Part shown: piece by piece, positions 52,965-63,443 of the stretch
Layout: each line of letters begins with the position of its first letter
Position numbering within the stretch: position 1 is the stretch's first letter
Assembly (NCBI RefSeq): GCF_001011115.1
Contig: NZ_CP008874.1
Span: 744,001 to 808,000, forward strand
DNA length: 64,000 nt
Direction: 5' to 3'
Origin: Halanaeroarchaeum sulfurireducens
GTDB lineage: Archaea; Halobacteriota; Halobacteria; Halobacteriales; Halobacteriaceae
Position numbers and translations under genes: made by a program
The notes under the pieces: generated by a model
Told to the model about the DNA's origin: nothing
The model's database searches: none
The model's input: only the letters and a program-made list of their open reading frames with translations

Positions 52965-54029
52965 TCAGCGCTCTCGCTCGATGACGAACCTGGTGAACTC
53001 ACGCAGGTCGTCCTCTACGGCCGGGACGAGATCGAGATCGTCGAGATGTGATCGGGCGTCGGCGGCAAACTCGAGTGCGCGCTCTCTTGCGTACTCCACG
53101 CTGTCCGTGGTCTGCAGAATCTCGATGACCTCCCGTATCTCGTCGTCCGCTACGGCGTCGGCGGTGAGGATTTCTTCCAGCCGTTCCGATTGCGCCTCGG
53201 TCCCCTCCTGAACGGCGTGAATGGTCATGAGCGTCCGTTTCCCCTCACGGATGTCGTTGCCGAATGCTTTCCCGAATGCTCCCGCCTCGTCGAGGCTGTT
53301 TTTCACGTCGAGGATGTCGTCGCCGATCTGAAATGCGATCGACAGCGACTCCGCGTATCCCGCCAGGGCGCCCTCCACGGCGGTCGGCTGGTTCGTGACG
53401 AGCGCCGCCAGTCGCCCGGCGATGCGGCCGAGACAACCGGTCTTGCACGCGCTCATCTCCAGGTACTCGTCTTCGCTGATGTCGATATTGCACTGATTGT
53501 GCCAGACGATATCCGTCCCCTGTCCCAGGTGGGTGCGGTTCAATTCGAAGGTCAGCATCTCGTAGACGGCGAGTTGCTGTTCGGACGAGAGGTCGGCCGG
53601 ATTGGCAGAGACGATCTTCAGTGGGACGAAGTACAGGGCGTTCCCGGCGTTGAGCGCGACGTCGGTGCCGTAGCGGTGGTGGATGGCCTCCTCTCCCCGG
53701 CGAAGCGACGCCCCGTCCTCGACGTCGTCGACGACGATAGTTCCCGTGTGGAGTATCTCCGGAATCGTCGCGTACGGGAGGTATTCGTGGGGGTCGTAGC
53801 CGAGTCCTTCGACGATTTTCAAAAAGAGGACCGGTCGCCAGCGCTTCCCGCCTCGGTCAAGCAGATCCCAGGTCGGTTCGATGAGTGCCTCGTTCAACGC
53901 GTCCGTGTCGTACGCGAATCGCGGCTCGCCGAACAGGTTCGCGAAGTCGTCATCCGTCATCTCGCGGGCCAGTAACCGCTCGATCTCCTCGTCGACCAGC
54001 GGACGCCACTCGGACAGCGCTTCCCGCAT
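52965..54029 (-). CDS. Isoprenyl diphosphate synthase (GGPP/FPP-type)
   Basis: A 354-residue trans-prenyltransferase with GGKRWRPVLFLKIV near residue 62, the first Asp-rich motif DDVEDGASLRRG (about 102-113) and the second IGDDILDVK (about 232-240). These define short-chain isoprenyl diphosphate synthases, which make the C15-C20 units for archaeal lipids and carotenoids. A phosphomevalonate-pathway gene cluster lies 3 kb away in this window. ATG 54029 follows a T-rich TATA region (54055-54062) at about 30 bases. Chain length is not deducible with confidence. Confidence 0.88.
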   Translation of the reverse strand: MREALSEWRPLVDEEIERLLAREMTDDDFANLFGEPRFAYDTDALNEALIEPTWDLLDRGGKRWRPVLFLKIVEGLGYDPHEYLPYATIPEILHTGTIVVDDVEDGASLRRGEEAIHHRYGTDVALNAGNALYFVPLKIVSANPADLSSEQQLAVYEMLTFELNRTHLGQGTDIVWHNQCNIDISEDEYLEMSACKTGCLGRIAGRLAALVTNQPTAVEGALAGYAESLSIAFQIGDDILDVKNSLDEAGAFGKAFGNDIREGKRTLMTIHAVQEGTEAQSERLEEILTADAVADDEIREVIEILQTTDSVEYARERALEFAADARSHLDDLDLVPAVEDDLREFTRFVIERER

Positions 54030-54122
54030 ATACCCGAGAAGACGCCTGCTGACGGTAAAAAACTTCCATTCTCCTTTTCCCGTTTCACAATACTTTTCGG
54101 TCGCCCTGTCGAGAATGAGCGT

Positions 54123-54377
54123 ATGTCCGCAAAAGAGGAATTGCGCGAGCAATTCGTCGCGGCGTTCGAAGGCGCAGACTACCCAGTCGACGACCCGATG
54201 GACCTGCTTCCCGCATTACCGGACGGACCGTCGACGAAGTTCTCCGCGGACGACGTCACGCTGACGGCGATGGATCTCGCGACGAACCTCGGCGACAAGG
54301 CCAATTTTCCGTACGATACCGTCGACGCTCTCGTCGACGACGTGATCTCGTCGCTCGAAGACGAAAACTATCTCTAA
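54123..54377 (+). CDS. MTH865-family small protein
   Basis: An 84-residue acidic protein with SAKEELREQFVAAFEGADYPVDDPMDLLPALPDGP at its N-terminus, which I recognise as the MTH865-like family (PF07747), a small helical archaeal family of unknown function. It is divergent from the isoprenyl diphosphate synthase gene and convergent with the NAD-kinase-like gene. Confidence 0.78.
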   Translation: MSAKEELREQFVAAFEGADYPVDDPMDLLPALPDGPSTKFSADDVTLTAMDLATNLGDKANFPYDTVDALVDDVISSLEDENYL

Positions 54378-56551: not shown

Positions 56552-57235
56552 TTACCACTGCTCGCCGCTCGCGAGATCGATTTCCTCGTCCACCTTCGAG
56601 GACGGGCAGATGTCCGCGAGTCGGCAGTTCTCACAGTCAGGATTCCGTGCAGTACAGGTGTCGCGTCCGTGCGAAATGAGCCAGTGCGTCCACGGCTTCC
56701 AGTGTTCCCGCGGTACGATTTCCATGAGGTCGTTCTCGATGGCCGCTGGCCGCTCCTCTGCCGTGATGCCGAGGCGACGGGAGATGCGCTGGACGTGCGT
56801 GTCCACGACGATCCCCTCGGTCAGATCGTGTCCGTGCTGGAGTACAACGTTGGCTGTCTTTCGTCCGACGCCCGGGAGGTCGGTGAGTTCGGCCATGGTG
56901 TCGGGGACCTCGCCGTCGTGTTCGGTGACGAGCGTCTCGCCGACGCCAACCAGATACTCAGCCTTGCTGTTCGGGTACGTGATGGATGAGATGACCTCCC
57001 GTATCGCGTCCTCCTCTGCGTCGGCGTACGCCTGCGCGTCGGGGAACCGCTCGAAGAGCGTCGTGGTAACTCGGTTGACGCGCTCGTCCGGACACTGCGC
57101 GGAGAGGATGACCGCGACCAGCAATTCGAGGCGGTTCGAGAAGTCGAGGGAGATCGTCGCGTCGGGATACGCCGTCGAGAGCCGGTCAATGACCTCGGCG
57201 ACCTGTTCCTCGCGGGTCTCGCGCGGCATGCCCAT
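56552..57235 (-). CDS. nth: Endonuclease III (Nth) DNA glycosylase/AP lyase
   Basis: A 227-residue base-excision repair enzyme for oxidised pyrimidines. Helix-hairpin-helix LPGVGRKTANVVL (about residues 115-127) with the catalytic Lys, the catalytic Asp in VVDTHVQR (about 142-149), and a C-terminal [4Fe-4S] cluster loop with Cys spacing C-x6-C-x2-C-x5-C (CTARNPDCENCRLADIC, about 193-209). All functional residues are intact. The start could also be two residues in, at the second Met. Confidence 0.95.
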   Translation of the reverse strand: MGMPRETREEQVAEVIDRLSTAYPDATISLDFSNRLELLVAVILSAQCPDERVNRVTTTLFERFPDAQAYADAEEDAIREVISSITYPNSKAEYLVGVGETLVTEHDGEVPDTMAELTDLPGVGRKTANVVLQHGHDLTEGIVVDTHVQRISRRLGITAEERPAAIENDLMEIVPREHWKPWTHWLISHGRDTCTARNPDCENCRLADICPSSKVDEEIDLASGEQW

Positions 57236-57295: not shown

Positions 57296-57304
57296 CCGTT
57301 ATAC
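57296..57304 (+). promoter_or_regulatory. TATA box of the UbiD-AcnX operon
   Basis: CGTTATACC 24-32 bases before the ATG at 57328, fitting a leaderless or very short-leader start. Confidence 0.5.
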
Positions 57305-57327
57305 CACGCGCTCCCGGAAACGTTCGT

Positions 57328-58632
57328 ATGGGACTGCGACAGCTGCTGGCCGACCGGGGGGACGCCACCGTCCTCACGGAATCGGTGGACCCGCGATTCG
57401 AACTCCCGGCGCTCGCGGCCGCAGACGAGTCCGCGCCGATGGTATTCGAGGAAGTCGCGGGCTACCCCGACGTCCGGGGTGTCTCGAATCTCGTCTCCAC
57501 CCGCGATCTGCTCGCCGACGCCCTCGGCGTGGAGCGCGATGGGGTGATCGGGGCGATGAGCGCGGCGATGGATCAGCCGCGGGCACTCGACGATTCCGTC
57601 TCGCCGCGCTTCGACGCCGTGGTCACTGACCCGGACCTGGACGAACACATCCCGATCCCCGTCTTCTACGACGAACACGAACGCCAGTACTTCGCGTCGA
57701 GTATCGTCGCGGTCGAGGATCCAGAGACGGGCGTCGGGAACCTCTCCTTTCACCGGATGATGTACGATGGCGGCGACGAACTCGTCGTTCGGATGGTCGA
57801 ACGCCACCTTCACGACATCTACTCGCGAACCGACGGTCCGCTCGAGGTCGCCATCGTGATGGGCGTTCACCCGGCGGTCGAACTGGCCGCCGCCACGTCG
57901 TTCTCGCCCGAGATGAGCGAACTCGAGATGGCGAACGCGCTGCTCGACGGCGACCTTGCAGTGACCGAGATCGACGGTATTCGCGTTCCGGCGGACGCAG
58001 AGGTGGTCCTCAGGGCGACCATCACGAAGGAGCGTCGGGAGGAAGGGCCGTTCGTGGATCTCTCGCGCACGTGGGATCGCACCCGAGAGCAACCGGTCGT
58101 CTCGGTCTCCGATCTCTACATGCGCGAGGATCCCTACGTCAGAATCATCGTGCCGGGCCGAACCGAACACGCCCATCTCATGGGCGTTCCCCAGGAACCT
58201 CGCATCTACACGATCGTCGAGAATACGATTCCGACCGTCCAGTCGGTCGTGCTCACGCCCGGGGGCTGTTCCTGGCTCCACGGCGTCGTCCAGATCGACA
58301 AACGTCAAGCGGGCGATCCGAAGAATGCCGGGATGGCCGCCCTCGCTGGCCATCCGTCGATGAAGAAGGTGACCGTCGTGGACGCGGACGTCGACCCGGC
58401 CGATCCCCAGCAGGTCGAGTGGGCCGAAGCGACGCGGATGCAACCGGATCGGGACATCACGACCATCGAGCACGCGAAGGGCTCCTCGCTCGACCCGTCC
58501 CAGGACTACGAGACGGGCGTACTCACGAAGTGGATCGTCGACGCGACGATCCCCGCTGACCGCGATCCCGCGGACTTCCGAGAGGTACCGGTCCCAGAAG
58601 CCGACGAGATCGACGTGGACGACTACCGGTGA
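57328..58632 (+). CDS. UbiD-family prenylated-FMN decarboxylase (anhydromevalonate phosphate decarboxylase candidate)
   Basis: A 434-residue UbiD-family enzyme, which uses prenylated FMN supplied by UbiX. Markers are VGNLSFHRMMYDGGDELVVR (about 139-155), MGVHPAVELAA (about 178) and the acidic loop EGPFVDLS (about 239-246) where UbiD enzymes carry the Glu of the E-R-E triad; the second Glu is Asp here (D244). The length fits archaeal UbiD paralogues. It is cotranscribed with both aconitase-X subunits and ubiX, the set needed to convert phosphomevalonate through anhydromevalonate 5-phosphate to isopentenyl phosphate. Its role in that route is inferred from context. Confidence 0.88.
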   Translation: MGLRQLLADRGDATVLTESVDPRFELPALAAADESAPMVFEEVAGYPDVRGVSNLVSTRDLLADALGVERDGVIGAMSAAMDQPRALDDSVSPRFDAVVTDPDLDEHIPIPVFYDEHERQYFASSIVAVEDPETGVGNLSFHRMMYDGGDELVVRMVERHLHDIYSRTDGPLEVAIVMGVHPAVELAAATSFSPEMSELEMANALLDGDLAVTEIDGIRVPADAEVVLRATITKERREEGPFVDLSRTWDRTREQPVVSVSDLYMREDPYVRIIVPGRTEHAHLMGVPQEPRIYTIVENTIPTVQSVVLTPGGCSWLHGVVQIDKRQAGDPKNAGMAALAGHPSMKKVTVVDADVDPADPQQVEWAEATRMQPDRDITTIEHAKGSSLDPSQDYETGVLTKWIVDATIPADRDPADFREVPVPEADEIDVDDYR

Positions 58633-58636
58633 TATC

Positions 58637-59821
58637 ATGGCTATGCATTTGACCGCCGACGAAGAGGCACTGCTCGACTCCGACAACCCGGCCGTCCGGA
58701 AGGCCATGGAGTTGCTCGTCCGGCTGGGGGACATCTACGGGGCCGACGAGATGGTCGAAATCGCGTCGGCCCAGGCCTCCGGTATCTCCTACAAGTCGAT
58801 CGGGGATCCCGGGATGGAGTTCCTCGAGGGGTTCGCCGAGGAGGGCGCCGAGGTTCGCGTCCAGACCTTCGCGAATCCGGCCGGCATGGACATTGACCGC
58901 TGGGAGGAGATGGGCGTAAGCCCCGAGTTCGCAAAGAAACAGCGCCGCATCCTCCAGGCGCTCCGGGAGATGGGCGTTACCCTCTCGTTTACCTGTACGC
59001 CCTATCTCGCCGGCAACCTCCCGCGCCGCAATCAGCACATCGCCTGGGCGGAGTCCTCGGCCGTCTCCTTTGCCAACTCCGTGATTGGCGCGCGAACCAA
59101 CCGCGAGGGCGGTCCCTCGGCGCTCGCCGCGGCCATCACGGGTCGCACGCCGAAGTACGGCCTCCATCTGCCGGAAAACCGGACGGCGACCCATCGCATC
59201 CACGTCGACCCCTCTCTGGACACGCAGGCCGATTTTGCAGCGCTGGGGTCGTGGACGGGGAGCATCGTCGAGGACGAGGTGCCGTACTTTACGGGCGTCG
59301 AGGATGCCACGACCGACGACCTGAAAGCGCTCGGCGCGGCGATGGCCGCGACGGGTGCGGTCGCGCTCTACTTCGTCGAGGACATCACGACAGACGAGAC
59401 GCCTCCGATCGACGCCGAGACGCTCGCCTTCGAGTCGGGCGATCTGGAATCCGAGTACGCCGACCTGACCGATACGGAGGACACGGATCTGGTCGTCTTC
59501 GGGTGCCCCCACTCCTCCGTCGAGGAGATCGAACGGATTGCGGATCGCCTCGAGGGCGAGTCCATCCAGGGTGACATGTGGGTCTGCACGAGCCGCTCGA
59601 ACAAGACGTGGTCCGACCGGCAAGGCTACACGGATACCATCGAGGCGGCCGGCGGAACGGTACTGAGTGATACCTGCAACGTGGTCGCCCCCATCGAGGA
59701 GATGGGCTACGAGTCGACCGCGACGGATTCGGCCAAAGCCGCCACCTATCTCCCCGGATTCGGCAATCAACGGGTCAAATTCGACGACAAGCTCTCGCTG
59801 CTCGAGGAGGTGACCGAATGA
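58637..59821 (+). CDS. Aconitase X large subunit (phosphomevalonate dehydratase large subunit candidate)
   Basis: A 394-residue aconitase-X catalytic subunit (PF04412). It has the N-terminal LTADEEALLDSDNPAVRKAMELLV block, LSFTCTPYLAGNLPRRNQ (C120), FGCPHSSVEEI (C290) and LSDTCNVVAPI (C347), the three cysteines expected to hold a [4Fe-4S] cluster, and an AESSAVSFANSVIGARTNREGGPS core. In the archaeal mevalonate pathway this protein with its small subunit dehydrates phosphomevalonate. It starts 4 bases after ubiD-like and overlaps the small subunit by 4 bases. Confidence 0.92.
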   Translation: MAMHLTADEEALLDSDNPAVRKAMELLVRLGDIYGADEMVEIASAQASGISYKSIGDPGMEFLEGFAEEGAEVRVQTFANPAGMDIDRWEEMGVSPEFAKKQRRILQALREMGVTLSFTCTPYLAGNLPRRNQHIAWAESSAVSFANSVIGARTNREGGPSALAAAITGRTPKYGLHLPENRTATHRIHVDPSLDTQADFAALGSWTGSIVEDEVPYFTGVEDATTDDLKALGAAMAATGAVALYFVEDITTDETPPIDAETLAFESGDLESEYADLTDTEDTDLVVFGCPHSSVEEIERIADRLEGESIQGDMWVCTSRSNKTWSDRQGYTDTIEAAGGTVLSDTCNVVAPIEEMGYESTATDSAKAATYLPGFGNQRVKFDDKLSLLEEVTE

Positions 59822-60222
59822 GCCACACCACACACGACGGCCGCACTATCGCAGACGGCGAGGCCACGGGAGCGGTCCTTCGCTCGACGGAGCCCATCAG
59901 CTTCTACGGGGCCGTCGATATCGAGTCGGGCGAGTTCATCGAAGAGGGCCATCAACTCGAGGGCGAGAACGTCTCCGATCGGGTCCTCGTCTTCCCGCGC
60001 GGCAAGGGATCCACGGTCGGATCGTACGTCCTCTACGGCCTCGCCCAGCGTGGGAACGCGCCCGCGGCGATCGTCAACGCCGAGACGGAGACCATCGTCG
60101 CCACCGGCGCCATTCTGGGCGAAATCCCATGTGTCGATGGCATCGACGTGACCGACCTCGAGGACGGCGATCGCGTCAACGTCGACGCGGACGAGGGCAC
60201 CGTGACGGTGCTGGAGGACTAA
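59818..60222 (+). CDS. Aconitase X small subunit (DUF126 swivel domain)
   Basis: A 134-residue DUF126/AcnX small subunit with the swivel-domain fold. The active loop FPRGKGSTVGSYVLYGL (about residues 59-75) carries the conserved Ser at 65. Separate AcnX subunits, as here, are the archaeal form. It overlaps the large subunit (ATGA) and ends two bases before ubiX. Confidence 0.92.
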   Translation: MSHTTHDGRTIADGEATGAVLRSTEPISFYGAVDIESGEFIEEGHQLEGENVSDRVLVFPRGKGSTVGSYVLYGLAQRGNAPAAIVNAETETIVATGAILGEIPCVDGIDVTDLEDGDRVNVDADEGTVTVLED

Positions 60223-60224
60223 CC

Positions 60225-60791
60225 GTGGATCCCATCGTTCTGGGCGTGTCCGGAGCCTCGGGGACGACGCTGGCGACCAGGACGGCGGAAGCACTCGCCG
60301 AGCACGCGGACGTCTACACCGTGGTGACCGACGGGGCGAAGTCGGTGATGGATCACGAGACGGACGCCCGCTCGCACACGATAGACCGCCTGGAGACCGT
60401 TTCGGAATCGGTCTACGACGAGGACGACTTCGGTGCCGCGATCGCGTCGGGCACTTTCCGGACCGCGGGGATGGTGATCGTTCCCTGCTCGATGAACACG
60501 CTCGCAAAACTCGCGACCGGCCTCTCCGACTCGCTTCTGACGCGGGCCGCCGACGTCACGTTCAAAGAGGATCGACCCCTGGTCGTCGTTCCCAGGGAGT
60601 CCCCGTTGGGTGAAATTCACCTCGAGAACATGCAGACCGTCGCCGGCCGCGGTGCCACTGTCGTTCCGCCGGTGCTCGGATTCTATTACGATCCCGAGGA
60701 CCTCGATGACGTCGTCGACCACGTGGTCGGCAAGATACTCGACCGGTTCGGGCTGTCGTACGACGGCTTCGAGCGCTGGTCTCCGGACTGA
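60225..60791 (+). CDS. ubiX: UbiX flavin prenyltransferase
   Basis: A 188-residue UbiX that prenylates FMN with dimethylallyl (di)phosphate to give the cofactor of UbiD enzymes. Markers: LGVSGASGTTLATR at the N-terminus, PCSMNTLAKLATGLSDSLLTRAADV (about 87-110) and VVVPRESPLGEIHLENM (about 123-138), all typical. The start is GTG 60225, two bases after the AcnX small subunit, completing the ubiD-acnX-ubiX operon. Confidence 0.92.
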   Translation: MDPIVLGVSGASGTTLATRTAEALAEHADVYTVVTDGAKSVMDHETDARSHTIDRLETVSESVYDEDDFGAAIASGTFRTAGMVIVPCSMNTLAKLATGLSDSLLTRAADVTFKEDRPLVVVPRESPLGEIHLENMQTVAGRGATVVPPVLGFYYDPEDLDDVVDHVVGKILDRFGLSYDGFERWSPD

Positions 60792-60825
60792 TCCGGCGGA
60801 TCTCGCCGCCATGTGGGATGCGTGA

Positions 60826-60832
60826 CGTTTAT
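60826..60832 (+). promoter_or_regulatory. TATA box of the phosphomevalonate decarboxylase gene
   Basis: CGTTTAT, about 26-32 bases before the ATG at 60858, indicating a separate promoter in the 66-base gap after ubiX. Confidence 0.5.
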
Positions 60833-60857
60833 GCGCCGCACGCGCCCGCCCTGTGAT

Positions 60858-61829
60858 ATGAAAGCCACCGCGCGCGCCCACCCCATTCAGGGGCTCGTGA
60901 AGTACCACGGCATTCGCGAGGAGGAGCTGCGGGTGCCCTATCACGACAGCATCAGCGTCTCGACGGCCCCCAGTGTCACGGTGACGACGGTCGAATTCGA
61001 CCCGGCGTTCGACGAGGACGTCTACGTGGTCGATGGCGACCCCCTTTCGGGGAACGGGGCCGACCGGCTCGATACGGTGGTTGACCACGTTCGGGAGCGT
61101 GCCGGTATCGACGCGCCGGTCAGACTCGAGAGCGAGAACTCCTTTCCCTCGAACGTAGGGCTGGGGTCCTCTTCGTCGGGCTTTGCAGCCGCTTCGATGG
61201 CGCTCGTCGAGGCTGCGGGCCTCGATCTCACGCTGCCCGAGATCTCCACGATCGCCCGGCGCGGATCCACCTCGGCGGCGCGGGCGGTGACCGGCGGCTT
61301 CTCCGATCTGCGGGCGGGCATGAACGACGAGGACTGTCGGTCCCATCGCATGGAGACGTCCCTCGAGGACGATCTCCGCATCGTCATCGGCCTGGTGCCG
61401 GCCTACAAGGAGACACAGCAGGCCCACGAGGAGGCCGAGGCCAGTCACATGTTCCAGGGTCGCCTCGCCCACGTGCACGGCCAGCTCGCCGACATGCGGG
61501 ACGCGATCCGATCGGGAGACTTCGATCGGACCTTCGCGCTCGCGGAACACGACACGCTCAGTCTGGCCGCCACGACGATGACCGGGCCCGCCGGGTGGGT
61601 CTACTGGAAGCCGGAAACGCTCGCCATCTTCGAGGCCGTCAGAGAACTCCGGGAAGACGGGGTGCCGGTCTACTTCTCGACCGACACGGGTGCGACGGTC
61701 TACGTGAACACGACGGTAGGGTACGTAGACCGCGTGGAGGAGACCGTCTTCGACCAGGGTGTCGAGACGATGACCTGGGAGGTCGGCGGTCCGTCCGAGG
61801 TCCTCGACGAGAGCGACGCGCTCTTTTAG
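60858..61829 (+). CDS. Phosphomevalonate decarboxylase (GHMP family)
   Basis: A 323-residue GHMP-family mevalonate decarboxylase. HPIQGLVKYHGIREEELRVP (about 8-27), FPSNVGLGSSSSGFAA for ATP (about 96-111), ARRGSTSAARAVTGGF (about 133-148) and the catalytic Asp in YFSTDTGATVYV (D276) match the (di)phosphomevalonate decarboxylase layout. In haloarchaea the studied member acts on phosphomevalonate, giving isopentenyl phosphate for isopentenyl phosphate kinase. ATG 60858 is supported by a TATA box. Lying right beside a complete AcnX-UbiD-UbiX operon is unexpected because both make the same product. Confidence 0.9.
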   Translation: MKATARAHPIQGLVKYHGIREEELRVPYHDSISVSTAPSVTVTTVEFDPAFDEDVYVVDGDPLSGNGADRLDTVVDHVRERAGIDAPVRLESENSFPSNVGLGSSSSGFAAASMALVEAAGLDLTLPEISTIARRGSTSAARAVTGGFSDLRAGMNDEDCRSHRMETSLEDDLRIVIGLVPAYKETQQAHEEAEASHMFQGRLAHVHGQLADMRDAIRSGDFDRTFALAEHDTLSLAATTMTGPAGWVYWKPETLAIFEAVRELREDGVPVYFSTDTGATVYVNTTVGYVDRVEETVFDQGVETMTWEVGGPSEVLDESDALF

Positions 61830-61987: not shown

Positions 61988-63443
61988 ACAGCGAGGGAAT
62001 CCCGCCCTTCCCGTGAGAGACGAGTGTTCTCACCTAGTCAGAACCGAGGAGCGAACAGGGCGGGAGGGAATCGCGTACGCTCCATAGAGCAATCCACTGG
62101 CTACGCCACGGCCGACTTCCAACGTTTTTCCGCTATATGACTAACTTTTATAGTAACTCGAATACATATGGATACGGTGGAGCTTCGACGTACTGCCGTC
62201 GTGAAACTTGACGTAGACGACGATGCTCACCACCTTCTCCAAGAGACGATAGACCGCTTCAAACAGTCCGCTCAGATGGTTGCGGACGACGGCTGGAACG
62301 GTACGGAAGACGGCTACATCGTCACGTCGAAAACTGAACTCCACGACCGGACATACGACGAAGTACGTGAAGCGACCGACGAACTCAACGCAGACCTCGT
62401 GTGTGCCGCGCGGAATCGAGCTGCCGACGCACTCGATTCCTGTGCTGAAAAACGCAAAGATGGCGAGAATCCCTCGAAACCACAGTTCACGTCGGATTCG
62501 GTCGTCTACAATCTCAACGCAATCACCTACTACGACGAGTACGCCACGCTTGCCACTGTGGACGGACGTATTGAAGCCGAGTACGTCCTGCCCGAGAAGG
62601 ACGTACCACCGACGACGTACTTTGCTGACGAGTGGGAGAAACGCGAAGCAACATTGCATCACCGTGACGGCGACTACTACCTCCACATCGCTGTCGTCAA
62701 AGAGACGGACACAGAGCCGGAAGATGCCGAGAACGGAGCGGTTCTCGGCGTCGACTTGAACGTGGATGGACACCTTGCCGTCACTTCGAGTGGTGCGTTC
62801 ATCGGCAACGCCGACTACCTCAACCACAAGCGGCGTGAGTACGAGGTGCGGCGTGGAAAAATGCAACAGGCCGGAACGCGGTCGGCTCATCTGACGATGC
62901 AATCACTCGGTGGGCGATTCGCCAACTGGAGCGAAGACTACCTGCATCGTGTCTCGAAAGCACTCGTGCAAGAAGCTCTCGCACACGACTGTACGCACAT
63001 CGCGTTTGAGAAGTTGGACCACATCCGCAAGCGCATCTCGAACGCGTCGAAGTTCCAGCAGTGGGCGTTCCGGCGCATCCAAGAGCACGCCGAGTACAAG
63101 GCCGCCGAATACGGCGTAGTGGTCGAGAAAATCGCGCCACAGTACACCAGTCAACGATGTAGTCACGTTGACTGTAGTTTTACCCACGAAGACAACAGAG
63201 ACGGCGACGAGTTCGAATGTCTGAAATGTGGGCGAGAGTATCACGCTGACTACAACGCCGCGAAGAACATCGCTCGGAAACGACTCCAGAACTGGCACAA
63301 GTCTGGTTCTGGAGGGGCAACCAGTCACCTTGCCCTGAAGTCGGGGACGTTGAACGTGAACGGCATTTACACGCCTACCACCGTTTAGTGGTCAGAACGG
63401 GAGCCCACCGACAAGCTCCGCCCTTCAGGGCGGAGAAGGTGAC
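61988..63443 (+). mobile_element. IS605/IS1341-type insertion element with tnpB only
   Basis: A 1456-bp element deduced from the two ends: removing it joins the radical SAM gene in frame (CNV-IKMAQY). The left end begins after TTGAT (61983-61987) and has hairpins CCCGCCCT/AGGGCGGG (62001-62008 with 62057-62064) and GTGAGA/TCTCAC (62013-62033). The right end carries a CTCCGCCC-TTCA-GGGCGGAG hairpin (63416-63435). No terminal inverted repeats or target duplication, as in this family. There is no tnpA, so mobility would need one in trans. The exact ends are uncertain by a few bases. Confidence 0.8.
62168..63388 (+). CDS. tnpB: TnpB RNA-guided endonuclease (IS605 family)
   Basis: A 406-residue TnpB, ancestor of Cas12. 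All three RuvC acidic residues are present: D196 (GVDLN), E281 (FEKLDH) and D361 (HADYNAA). The zinc finger has C331 and C336 (CSHVDC) and C351/C354 (CLKC). The N-terminal half (up to about 190) is the recognition and wedge domain. The protein looks intact and full length. A TATA-like TTTTATAG lies about 20-25 bases before the ATG (62144-62151). It probably uses an RNA made from the element's right end to cut DNA at TTGAT-flanked targets. Confidence 0.93.
   Translation: MDTVELRRTAVVKLDVDDDAHHLLQETIDRFKQSAQMVADDGWNGTEDGYIVTSKTELHDRTYDEVREATDELNADLVCAARNRAADALDSCAEKRKDGENPSKPQFTSDSVVYNLNAITYYDEYATLATVDGRIEAEYVLPEKDVPPTTYFADEWEKREATLHHRDGDYYLHIAVVKETDTEPEDAENGAVLGVDLNVDGHLAVTSSGAFIGNADYLNHKRREYEVRRGKMQQAGTRSAHLTMQSLGGRFANWSEDYLHRVSKALVQEALAHDCTHIAFEKLDHIRKRISNASKFQQWAFRRIQEHAEYKAAEYGVVVEKIAPQYTSQRCSHVDCSFTHEDNRDGDEFECLKCGREYHADYNAAKNIARKRLQNWHKSGSGGATSHLALKSGTLNVNGIYTPTTV

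What the first reader, a model, noticed from the sequence alone, without database searches (positions are those of the whole stretch)
57296..61829. Two complete lower mevalonate branches side by side: AcnX-UbiD-UbiX operon plus a phosphomevalonate decarboxylase
Seen: a tight operon of UbiD-like, aconitase-X large and small subunits and UbiX, followed 66 bases later by a GHMP decarboxylase with an intact catalytic Asp (D276). Established: archaea generally convert phosphomevalonate through anhydromevalonate 5-phosphate with AcnX and a UbiD-type decarboxylase, while haloarchaea such as Haloferax volcanii use phosphomevalonate decarboxylase. As far as I know the two routes are treated as alternatives. 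Inference: this organism may run both, switch between them (for example with iron or oxygen, since AcnX needs a Fe-S cluster), or use one for another acid. An isoprenyl diphosphate synthase lies 3 kb away.
Basis: partly seen in the sequence, partly recalled or inferred. Interest (0 to 1): 0.8.

Follow-up and report, generated by a model that had tools for sequence, protein, structure and literature searches.

The report
Dual mevalonate branches in anaerobic haloarchaea
A salt-loving archaeon that lives without oxygen carries, side by side, the genes for two different ways of making the building block of its membrane lipids: the route that all its relatives have, and an oxygen-sensitive, energy-saving route of other archaea that looks like an added four-gene cassette found mainly in haloarchaea known to live with little or no oxygen.

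Summary
Confirmed. UbiD, AcnX large, AcnX small and UbiX form one tight operon (57328-60791), followed 66 bases later by phosphomevalonate decarboxylase (PMD) with K15, H17, R142 and D276. The genome is Halanaeroarchaeum sulfurireducens, a strict anaerobe; mevalonate kinase and isopentenyl phosphate kinase lie elsewhere, so both lower mevalonate branches look complete. AcnX keeps the cluster cysteines, the glutamate and nearly all phosphomevalonate contacts of Thermococcus AcnX; the UbiD has the motif of AcnX-linked archaeal UbiDs. Among 391 haloarchaeal genomes PMD is universal; the module occurs in 18 (4.6%), and its UbiD in exactly those 18. Carriers include Halanaeroarchaeum, Halodesulfurarchaeum, Halorhabdus, Halapricum and Halalkaliarchaeum, genera with anaerobic or microaerophilic members. 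In module-free relatives the same site is nth|PMD with nothing between, so the four genes are a clean insertion (or deletion) beside PMD, which keeps its own promoter-like site. All five genes are under purifying selection. Trees favour lateral gain over simple retention. Best reading: an oxygen-labile, ATP-saving branch added to PMD, not replacing it. Enzyme activity and any switching remain untested.

The parts
57299..57304 (+). TATA-like element about 28 bases before the UbiD start codon (inferred promoter, leaderless type)
   Evidence: Sequence. Most of the 18 carriers have an AT-rich patch at a similar distance, but the sequence differs between genera. Consensus reading only.
57328..58632 (+). 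[quoted passage not shown]
   Evidence: Motifs EGPFVDLSRTWD and LTPGGCSWLH resemble AcnX-linked archaeal UbiDs and differ from HmfF and UbiD paralogues. Orthologue found only in AcnX-operon carriers.
58637..59821 (+). Aconitase X large subunit, predicted mevalonate 5-phosphate dehydratase (PMDh), type IIb
   Evidence: PF04412 486 bits. Best solved relative is Thermococcus AcnX 7cnr at 350 bits against 178 for hydroxyproline dehydratase. C120, E139, C290, C347, K367, Y371, N80 and S140 conserved.
59818..60222 (+). Aconitase X small (swivel) subunit
   Evidence: PF01989 108 bits. Best solved relative 7cnr_B. Catalytic-serine motif GSTVG conserved.
60225..60791 (+). UbiX flavin prenyltransferase, predicted supplier of prenyl-FMN to the UbiD
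   Evidence: NF004685 211 bits and TIGR00421 201 bits, both over cut-off. Last gene of the operon in all 18 carriers.
60828..60833 (+). TATA-like element about 27 bases before the PMD start codon
   Evidence: The stretch gacgtttatgcg is identical upstream of PMD in the module-free loci L230 and L231.
60858..61829 (+). Phosphomevalonate decarboxylase (PMD, haloarchaeal type)
   Evidence: NF040704 590 bits, cut-off 475. K15, H17, R142, D276 present. Family found in 391 of 391 haloarchaea.
56552..57235 (-). Endonuclease III (nth), left flank of the cassette
   Evidence: PF00730. In module-free relatives of the same family nth lies directly beside PMD.
52965..54152 (-). Isoprenyl diphosphate synthase, downstream pathway gene nearby
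   Evidence: PF00348 198 bits. Also near the module in the other three carriers of the family.

Best explanation
The four-gene operon encodes the archaeal-type lower mevalonate branch. AcnX (large plus small subunit, [4Fe-4S]) dehydrates mevalonate 5-phosphate to trans-anhydromevalonate 5-phosphate, and the UbiD enzyme, using prenyl-FMN made by the operon's own UbiX, decarboxylates it to isopentenyl phosphate. The neighbouring PMD makes the same product directly at the cost of one more ATP. Mevalonate kinase and isopentenyl phosphate kinase, encoded elsewhere in the genome, serve both. The module was added to the universal haloarchaeal PMD pathway, most likely by lateral transfer, and is kept mainly in lineages that live with little or no oxygen, where the oxygen-labile AcnX can work and saving ATP pays. 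PMD is never lost and keeps its own promoter-like site. Shown here: gene content, residues, motifs, co-occurrence, the cassette's boundaries and purifying selection. Inferred: substrate, direction, use without oxygen, and any switching.
For: Enzyme identity: AcnX matches Thermococcus AcnX at 350 bits against 178 for hydroxyproline dehydratase; the cluster cysteines, catalytic Glu and Ser and the MVA5P-contacting Asn80, Ser140, Lys367 and Tyr371 are conserved (residues from PMC8184944 and PMC10040528). The UbiD has the motif of AcnX-linked archaeal UbiDs. UbiX-UbiD-AcnX clusters occur in many Halobacteriota-phylum genomes that have no PMD over cut-off. Completeness: MVK 274 bits (cut-off 163) and IPK 163 bits (cut-off 120), adjacent. 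Distribution: AcnX operon in 18 of 391, UbiD orthologue in exactly those 18 (759 bits or more; next best 213), PMD in 391 of 391. Lifestyle: carriers include Halanaeroarchaeum, Halodesulfurarchaeum, Halorhabdus, Halapricum and Halalkaliarchaeum; PMC10999741 names Halorhabdus tiamatea, Halanaeroarchaeum, Halodesulfurarchaeum and Natranaeroarchaeum as the only haloarchaea preferring microaerophilic or anaerobic conditions. NrdD occurs in 6 genomes, all carriers; COX1 is missing in 4 of 80 tested, 3 of them carriers. The archaeal pathway is oxygen-sensitive and ATP-saving (PMC10040528). Insertion: module-free relatives have nth|PMD|FAD oxidoreductase; Halodesulfurarchaeum has nth|module|PMD|FAD oxidoreductase. 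Both sets have dN/dS of about 0 to 0.24.
Against: No activity or expression data. Fifteen of the 18 carriers also have COX1, so carriers are not all strict anaerobes; one genome without COX1 (G128) lacks AcnX. Eight of the 18 carriers were named directly, two were placed by an AcnX match, seven only share a genus code with a named carrier, and one (G002) is unidentified. NrdD is confined to one genus. PMD persists even in strict anaerobes, which a pure oxygen switch does not explain. Asn53 of the Thermococcus phosphate site is Ser54 here, though it is Thr in most relatives.
Confidence: 0.75

Rival explanations
1. The AcnX-UbiD-UbiX module acts on another hydroxy acid, not mevalonate 5-phosphate, and PMD alone makes isopentenyl phosphate, as in other haloarchaea.
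For: PMD is intact and universal, so the module is not needed for isoprenoids. Functions of AcnX types IIc-f are unknown (PMC8184944). In 14 of 18 carriers the module is not next to PMD.
Against: MVA5P-contacting residues are nearly all conserved; the UbiD motif and the trees place both enzymes with archaeal AcnX-linked proteins. In the window's family the module abuts PMD.
Confidence: 0.1
2. The AcnX/UbiD branch is the main route in carriers, and their PMD has drifted to a side role or another substrate.
For: PMD scores are somewhat low in some carriers, such as G002 at 522 bits. Halodesulfurarchaeum has a second, diverged PMD paralogue.
Against: All 18 carrier PMDs keep the lysine, histidine, arginine and aspartate, pass the equivalog cut-off and, in the pairs tested, have dN/dS of 0.08-0.24.
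Confidence: 0.12
3. On origin: the module was inherited from the methanogen-like ancestor of haloarchaea and lost in the aerobic majority, with no lateral gain. This bears on history, not on function, and can hold together with the best explanation of how the enzymes work.
For: The haloarchaeal module proteins form one clade. Pairwise distances correlate with EF-2 at about 0.82-0.90. The nearest lineages by EF-2, G408 and G417, have AcnX and UbiD without PMD.
Against: The AcnX data reject grouping haloarchaea with G408 and G417 (p-AU 5e-5), also when G522 is added (p-AU 0.008). Halalkaliarchaeum, of another family, nests with Halapricum in the UbiD tree with support 95/97. Retention would need many independent losses. 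The tests rest on one gene each with long branches.
Confidence: 0.25
4. One of the two sets is a decaying relic with no current role.
For: The two sets are redundant on paper.
Against: All reading frames are intact in 18 genomes, key residues are conserved, and dN/dS is well below 1 for all five genes.
Confidence: 0.03

Closest known systems
Archaeal modified mevalonate pathway (Aeropyrum pernix, Methanosarcina mazei: PMDh/AcnX type IIb, AMPD, UbiX)
   Same: Same enzyme families, cluster ligands, MVA5P residues, UbiD motif and gene clustering.
   Different: Found here in haloarchaea, together with a complete PMD branch; gene order UbiD-AcnXL-AcnXS-UbiX instead of the UbiX-UbiD-AcnXL-AcnXS seen in many other genomes of the phylum.
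Haloarchaeal PMD pathway (Haloferax volcanii)
   Same: PMD equivalog with the expected residues, plus MVK and IPK.
   Different: Haloferax volcanii gave no AcnX hit in the control search; carriers have the extra branch.
Hodarchaeales with AcnX/AMPD markers and eukaryote-type PMK/DMD on one contig (PMC11052028)
   Same: Two lower mevalonate branches in one genome.
   Different: There the second branch is eukaryote-type; here it is PMD, and the organisms are haloarchaea, several of them anaerobes.
[quoted passage not shown]
   Same: Same AcnX family.
   Different: Score 256 bits against the NCBIfam cut-off of 700; the hydroxyproline-binding Asp203 and Ile206 correspond to Ser48 and Ser51 here.

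Membership tests
Phosphomevalonate dehydratase (AcnX type IIb) | Separate large and small subunits encoded in tandem | tested here: met
   58637-59821 and 59818-60222, 4-base overlap
Phosphomevalonate dehydratase (AcnX type IIb) | Three cluster cysteines at sites A, 1 and B, plus the catalytic glutamate | tested here: met
   C120, C290, C347, E139, identical in all 18 haloarchaeal sequences
Phosphomevalonate dehydratase (AcnX type IIb) | MVA5P-contacting residues of TkAcnX | tested here: met
   N80, E139, S140, S141, K367, Y371 and small-subunit S65 and T66 conserved; one exception, Asn53 is Ser54 (Thr in most relatives) (PMC8184944)
Phosphomevalonate dehydratase (AcnX type IIb) | Activity on mevalonate 5-phosphate | not testable with these tools
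   Needs an anaerobic enzyme assay
trans-Anhydromevalonate phosphate decarboxylase (UbiD family) | UbiD domains with an Arg and acidic active-site motif | tested here: met
   PF01977, PF20696, PF20695; HR at 142-143 and EGPFVD at 239-244
trans-Anhydromevalonate phosphate decarboxylase (UbiD family) | Groups with AcnX-linked archaeal UbiDs, apart from UbiD paralogues | tested here: met
   UbiD tree and motif comparison; strict co-occurrence with the AcnX operon in haloarchaea. No sequence of an assayed AMPD was in the set.
trans-Anhydromevalonate phosphate decarboxylase (UbiD family) | A UbiX partner that supplies prenyl-FMN | tested here: met
   UbiX gene in the operon; supply itself is inferred
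trans-Anhydromevalonate phosphate decarboxylase (UbiD family) | Activity on trans-anhydromevalonate 5-phosphate | not testable with these tools
   Needs an enzyme assay
Phosphomevalonate decarboxylase | Equivalog model over cut-off and catalytic residues | tested here: met
   NF040704 590 of 475 bits; K15, H17, R142, D276
Phosphomevalonate decarboxylase | Activity on mevalonate 5-phosphate | not testable with these tools
   Needs an enzyme assay
[quoted passage not shown]
   256 bits against a cut-off of 700; Asp203 and Ile206 replaced

The most novel reading that the evidence does not exclude
Some anaerobic haloarchaea regained the ancestral, oxygen-labile archaeal mevalonate branch by lateral transfer of a four-gene cassette, in one family placed directly beside PMD, and now run two separately controlled lower branches, chosen by oxygen or energy supply.
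Probability: 0.45. Interest if true: 0.75.

Novelty: new variant of a known kind. Interest (0 to 1): 0.62.

Why it matters
The surveys and reviews read here describe haloarchaea as users of the PMD branch and treat the branches as alternatives (PMC10040528, PMC11052028). Here both are complete in one genome, and the identity of the carriers points to oxygen and energy as the reason. That makes a standing idea directly testable in culturable organisms: that PMD suits haloarchaea as an adaptation to oxygen at the price of one ATP. The carriers also offer salt-adapted AcnX and UbiD enzymes for pathway engineering.

Tried and rejected
AcnX hits below cut-off in 35 genomes (about 18-28 bits) were set aside: they cover only part of the model and probably belong to other proteins; their identity was not checked. 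G271's AcnX (357 bits, 33% identity to the window's, no UbiD beside it) was set aside as a different AcnX. PMD-like genes in G437 and G443 looked like a second case of both branches but have Gln in place of the catalytic Asp, so they were dropped. NrdD as a marker of anaerobic life was too narrow (one genus); COX1 absence gave only a weak signal (Fisher p 0.03). The plasmid match used to name genomes failed for G001. Papers by Hayakawa 2018, VanNice 2014 and Sorokin 2022 were not held. Paper searches for haloarchaea with AcnX, or for Halanaeroarchaeum with mevalonate, found no report of the dual set. Structure prediction was not run, since solved relatives and residue checks sufficed.
Full report
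WHAT IS THERE. Five genes run on the + strand: UbiD 57328-58632, AcnX large 58637-59821, AcnX small 59818-60222, UbiX 60225-60791 and, after 66 bases, a GHMP decarboxylase 60858-61829. Family searches agree: UbiD domains, AcnX (486 bits), AcnX swivel, UbiX models, and the phosphomevalonate decarboxylase equivalog NF040704 (590 bits, cut-off 475). The first four genes are spaced by at most 4 bases or overlap, as in one operon.

WHICH ORGANISM. The window is G000:C1:744001-808000 of a 2.21 Mb genome in two contigs. The second contig, 124,256 bases long, matches the plasmid NZ_CP011565.1 of Halanaeroarchaeum sulfurireducens at 99.9% over the 6,000 bases compared, and the record has the same length. 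[quoted passage not shown] No heme-copper oxidase subunit I was found in the genome.

BOTH BRANCHES ARE COMPLETE ON PAPER. Mevalonate kinase (TIGR00549 274 bits, cut-off 163) and isopentenyl phosphate kinase (NF040647 163 bits, cut-off 120) lie next to each other at about G000:C1:1406235-1407622. HMG-CoA synthase and reductase were not searched for.

THE AcnX. Its best solved relative is Thermococcus kodakarensis AcnX (350 bits), against 178 bits for hydroxyproline dehydratase. The residues mutated in Aeropyrum PMDh (PMC10040528) correspond to C120, E139, C290 and C347, present in all 18 haloarchaeal sequences. Of the side chains that touch mevalonate 5-phosphate in the Thermococcus crystal (PMC8184944), all those compared are kept except Asn53, which is Ser54 here and Thr in most relatives. 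The small-subunit numbers printed are shifted by one from the paper's; read with that shift, Ser62, Thr63 and Val64 correspond to S65, T66 and V67. The hydroxyproline-binding Asp203 and Ile206 of the Agrobacterium enzyme are replaced.

THE UbiD. Its active-site stretch EGPFVDLSRTWD and the stretch LTPGGCSWLH resemble those of UbiDs from AcnX-bearing archaea and differ from HmfF and from two UbiD paralogues. AcnX and UbiD give concordant trees. The clade was not anchored by the sequence of an assayed AMPD.

DISTRIBUTION. In 391 haloarchaeal genomes drawn from the class, PMD is found in all (387 over the curated cut-off). An AcnX over the cut-off is found in 19, of which 18 have the full UbiD-AcnXL-AcnXS-UbiX operon. 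A full-length orthologue of the UbiD is found in exactly those 18; the next best score is 213 bits against 759 or more. Haloferax volcanii, a control genome, has no AcnX hit. PMD adjoins the module only in the four carriers of the window's family.

WHO CARRIES IT. Eight carriers are named this way: Halanaeroarchaeum sulfurireducens and sp. HSR-CO, Halalkaliarchaeum sp. AArc-CO, Halapricum desulfuricans and H. hydrolyticum, Halorhabdus tiamatea, H. salina and H. amylolytica. Two (G001, G007) are taken as Halodesulfurarchaeum because a named metagenome contig of that genus has a 78% AcnX match with the window's, as they do. Seven share a genus code with a named carrier; G002 is unidentified. [quoted passage not shown] Three of these four genera are carriers here; Natranaeroarchaeum could not be checked. 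The link is not absolute: 15 of 18 carriers have COX1, and one genome without COX1 (G128) lacks AcnX. NrdD occurs in six genomes, all carriers, but all of one genus.

INSERTION SITE. In two module-free genomes of the same family (G023 and G067, genus g3, probably Halobacterium, a name taken from memory and not matched), nth and PMD are neighbours, transcribed apart, with no gene seen between. In the four carriers of the family the four genes sit exactly there. In the two Halodesulfurarchaeum-group carriers the gene after PMD is a relative of the FAD-dependent oxidoreductase that follows PMD in the module-free genomes (46% identity), so both flanks match and the cassette is the difference. Synteny alone does not decide which state came first. 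The stretch gacgtttatgcg before PMD is identical in the window and in both module-free loci, so PMD probably keeps its own promoter.

SELECTION. Nine pairs of related carriers give dN/dS of about 0 to 0.24 for all five genes (Nei-Gojobori). Catalytic residues of PMD are intact in all 18 carriers. Neither set looks like a relic.

ORIGIN. By EF-2 the nearest relatives of haloarchaea in the set are G408 and G417, but the AcnX data reject grouping haloarchaea with these two (p-AU 5e-5). In the UbiD tree Halalkaliarchaeum, of another family, groups with Halapricum (95/97). Lateral gain, with at least one further transfer among haloarchaea, is therefore favoured. The tests rest on single genes with long branches.

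HOW IT LIKELY WORKS. AcnX and UbiD turn mevalonate 5-phosphate into isopentenyl phosphate without ATP; PMD does it with one ATP (established pathway knowledge). The archaeal route is oxygen-sensitive, and when rebuilt in bacteria it works only under nearly anaerobic conditions (PMC10040528). An anaerobe with little energy would gain from the cheaper route; PMD, never lost in the survey, may cover oxygen exposure, iron shortage or high demand. These last points are inference.

WHAT IS NEW. The surveys read here place haloarchaea in the PMD type (PMC11052028, PMC10040528), and the open-access searches found no report of both sets in haloarchaea. Subscription papers were not searchable. Two branches in one genome have been reported for Hodarchaeales with a eukaryote-type second branch (PMC11052028).

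Noticed in passing
window 62168-63388 (+): A TnpB-like gene (PF07282 71 bits) lies about 340 bases downstream of PMD; no such gene was seen at this place in the close relative Halanaeroarchaeum sp. HSR-CO (L037).
   Followed up: partly
L075 and L076 (G001:C1:863936-864871, G007:C1:1800469-1801404): Both Halodesulfurarchaeum-group genomes have a second, diverged PMD paralogue (about 53% identity to the window's PMD) that keeps the catalytic Lys, His, Arg and Asp.
   Followed up: partly
L090, L093, L096: AcnX proteins of three Euryarchaeota MAGs (isolates EA_3, EA_11, EA_4) have Ser in place of the site-1 cluster cysteine while keeping most MVA5P residues; possibly a variant cluster.
   Followed up: no
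L054 (G271:C6:30500-49500): One genome of family f3 has a different AcnX (33% identity) with a small subunit and no UbiD within the stretch; function unknown.
   Followed up: no
L236 and L237 (G437, G443): PMD-like GHMP genes with Gln in place of the catalytic Asp, in genomes that also have AcnX and UbiD; in G443 the open frame holds one TGA.
   Followed up: partly
L135 (G000:C2:1-6000): The 124 kb plasmid of the window's genome carries BREX-type genes.
   Followed up: no
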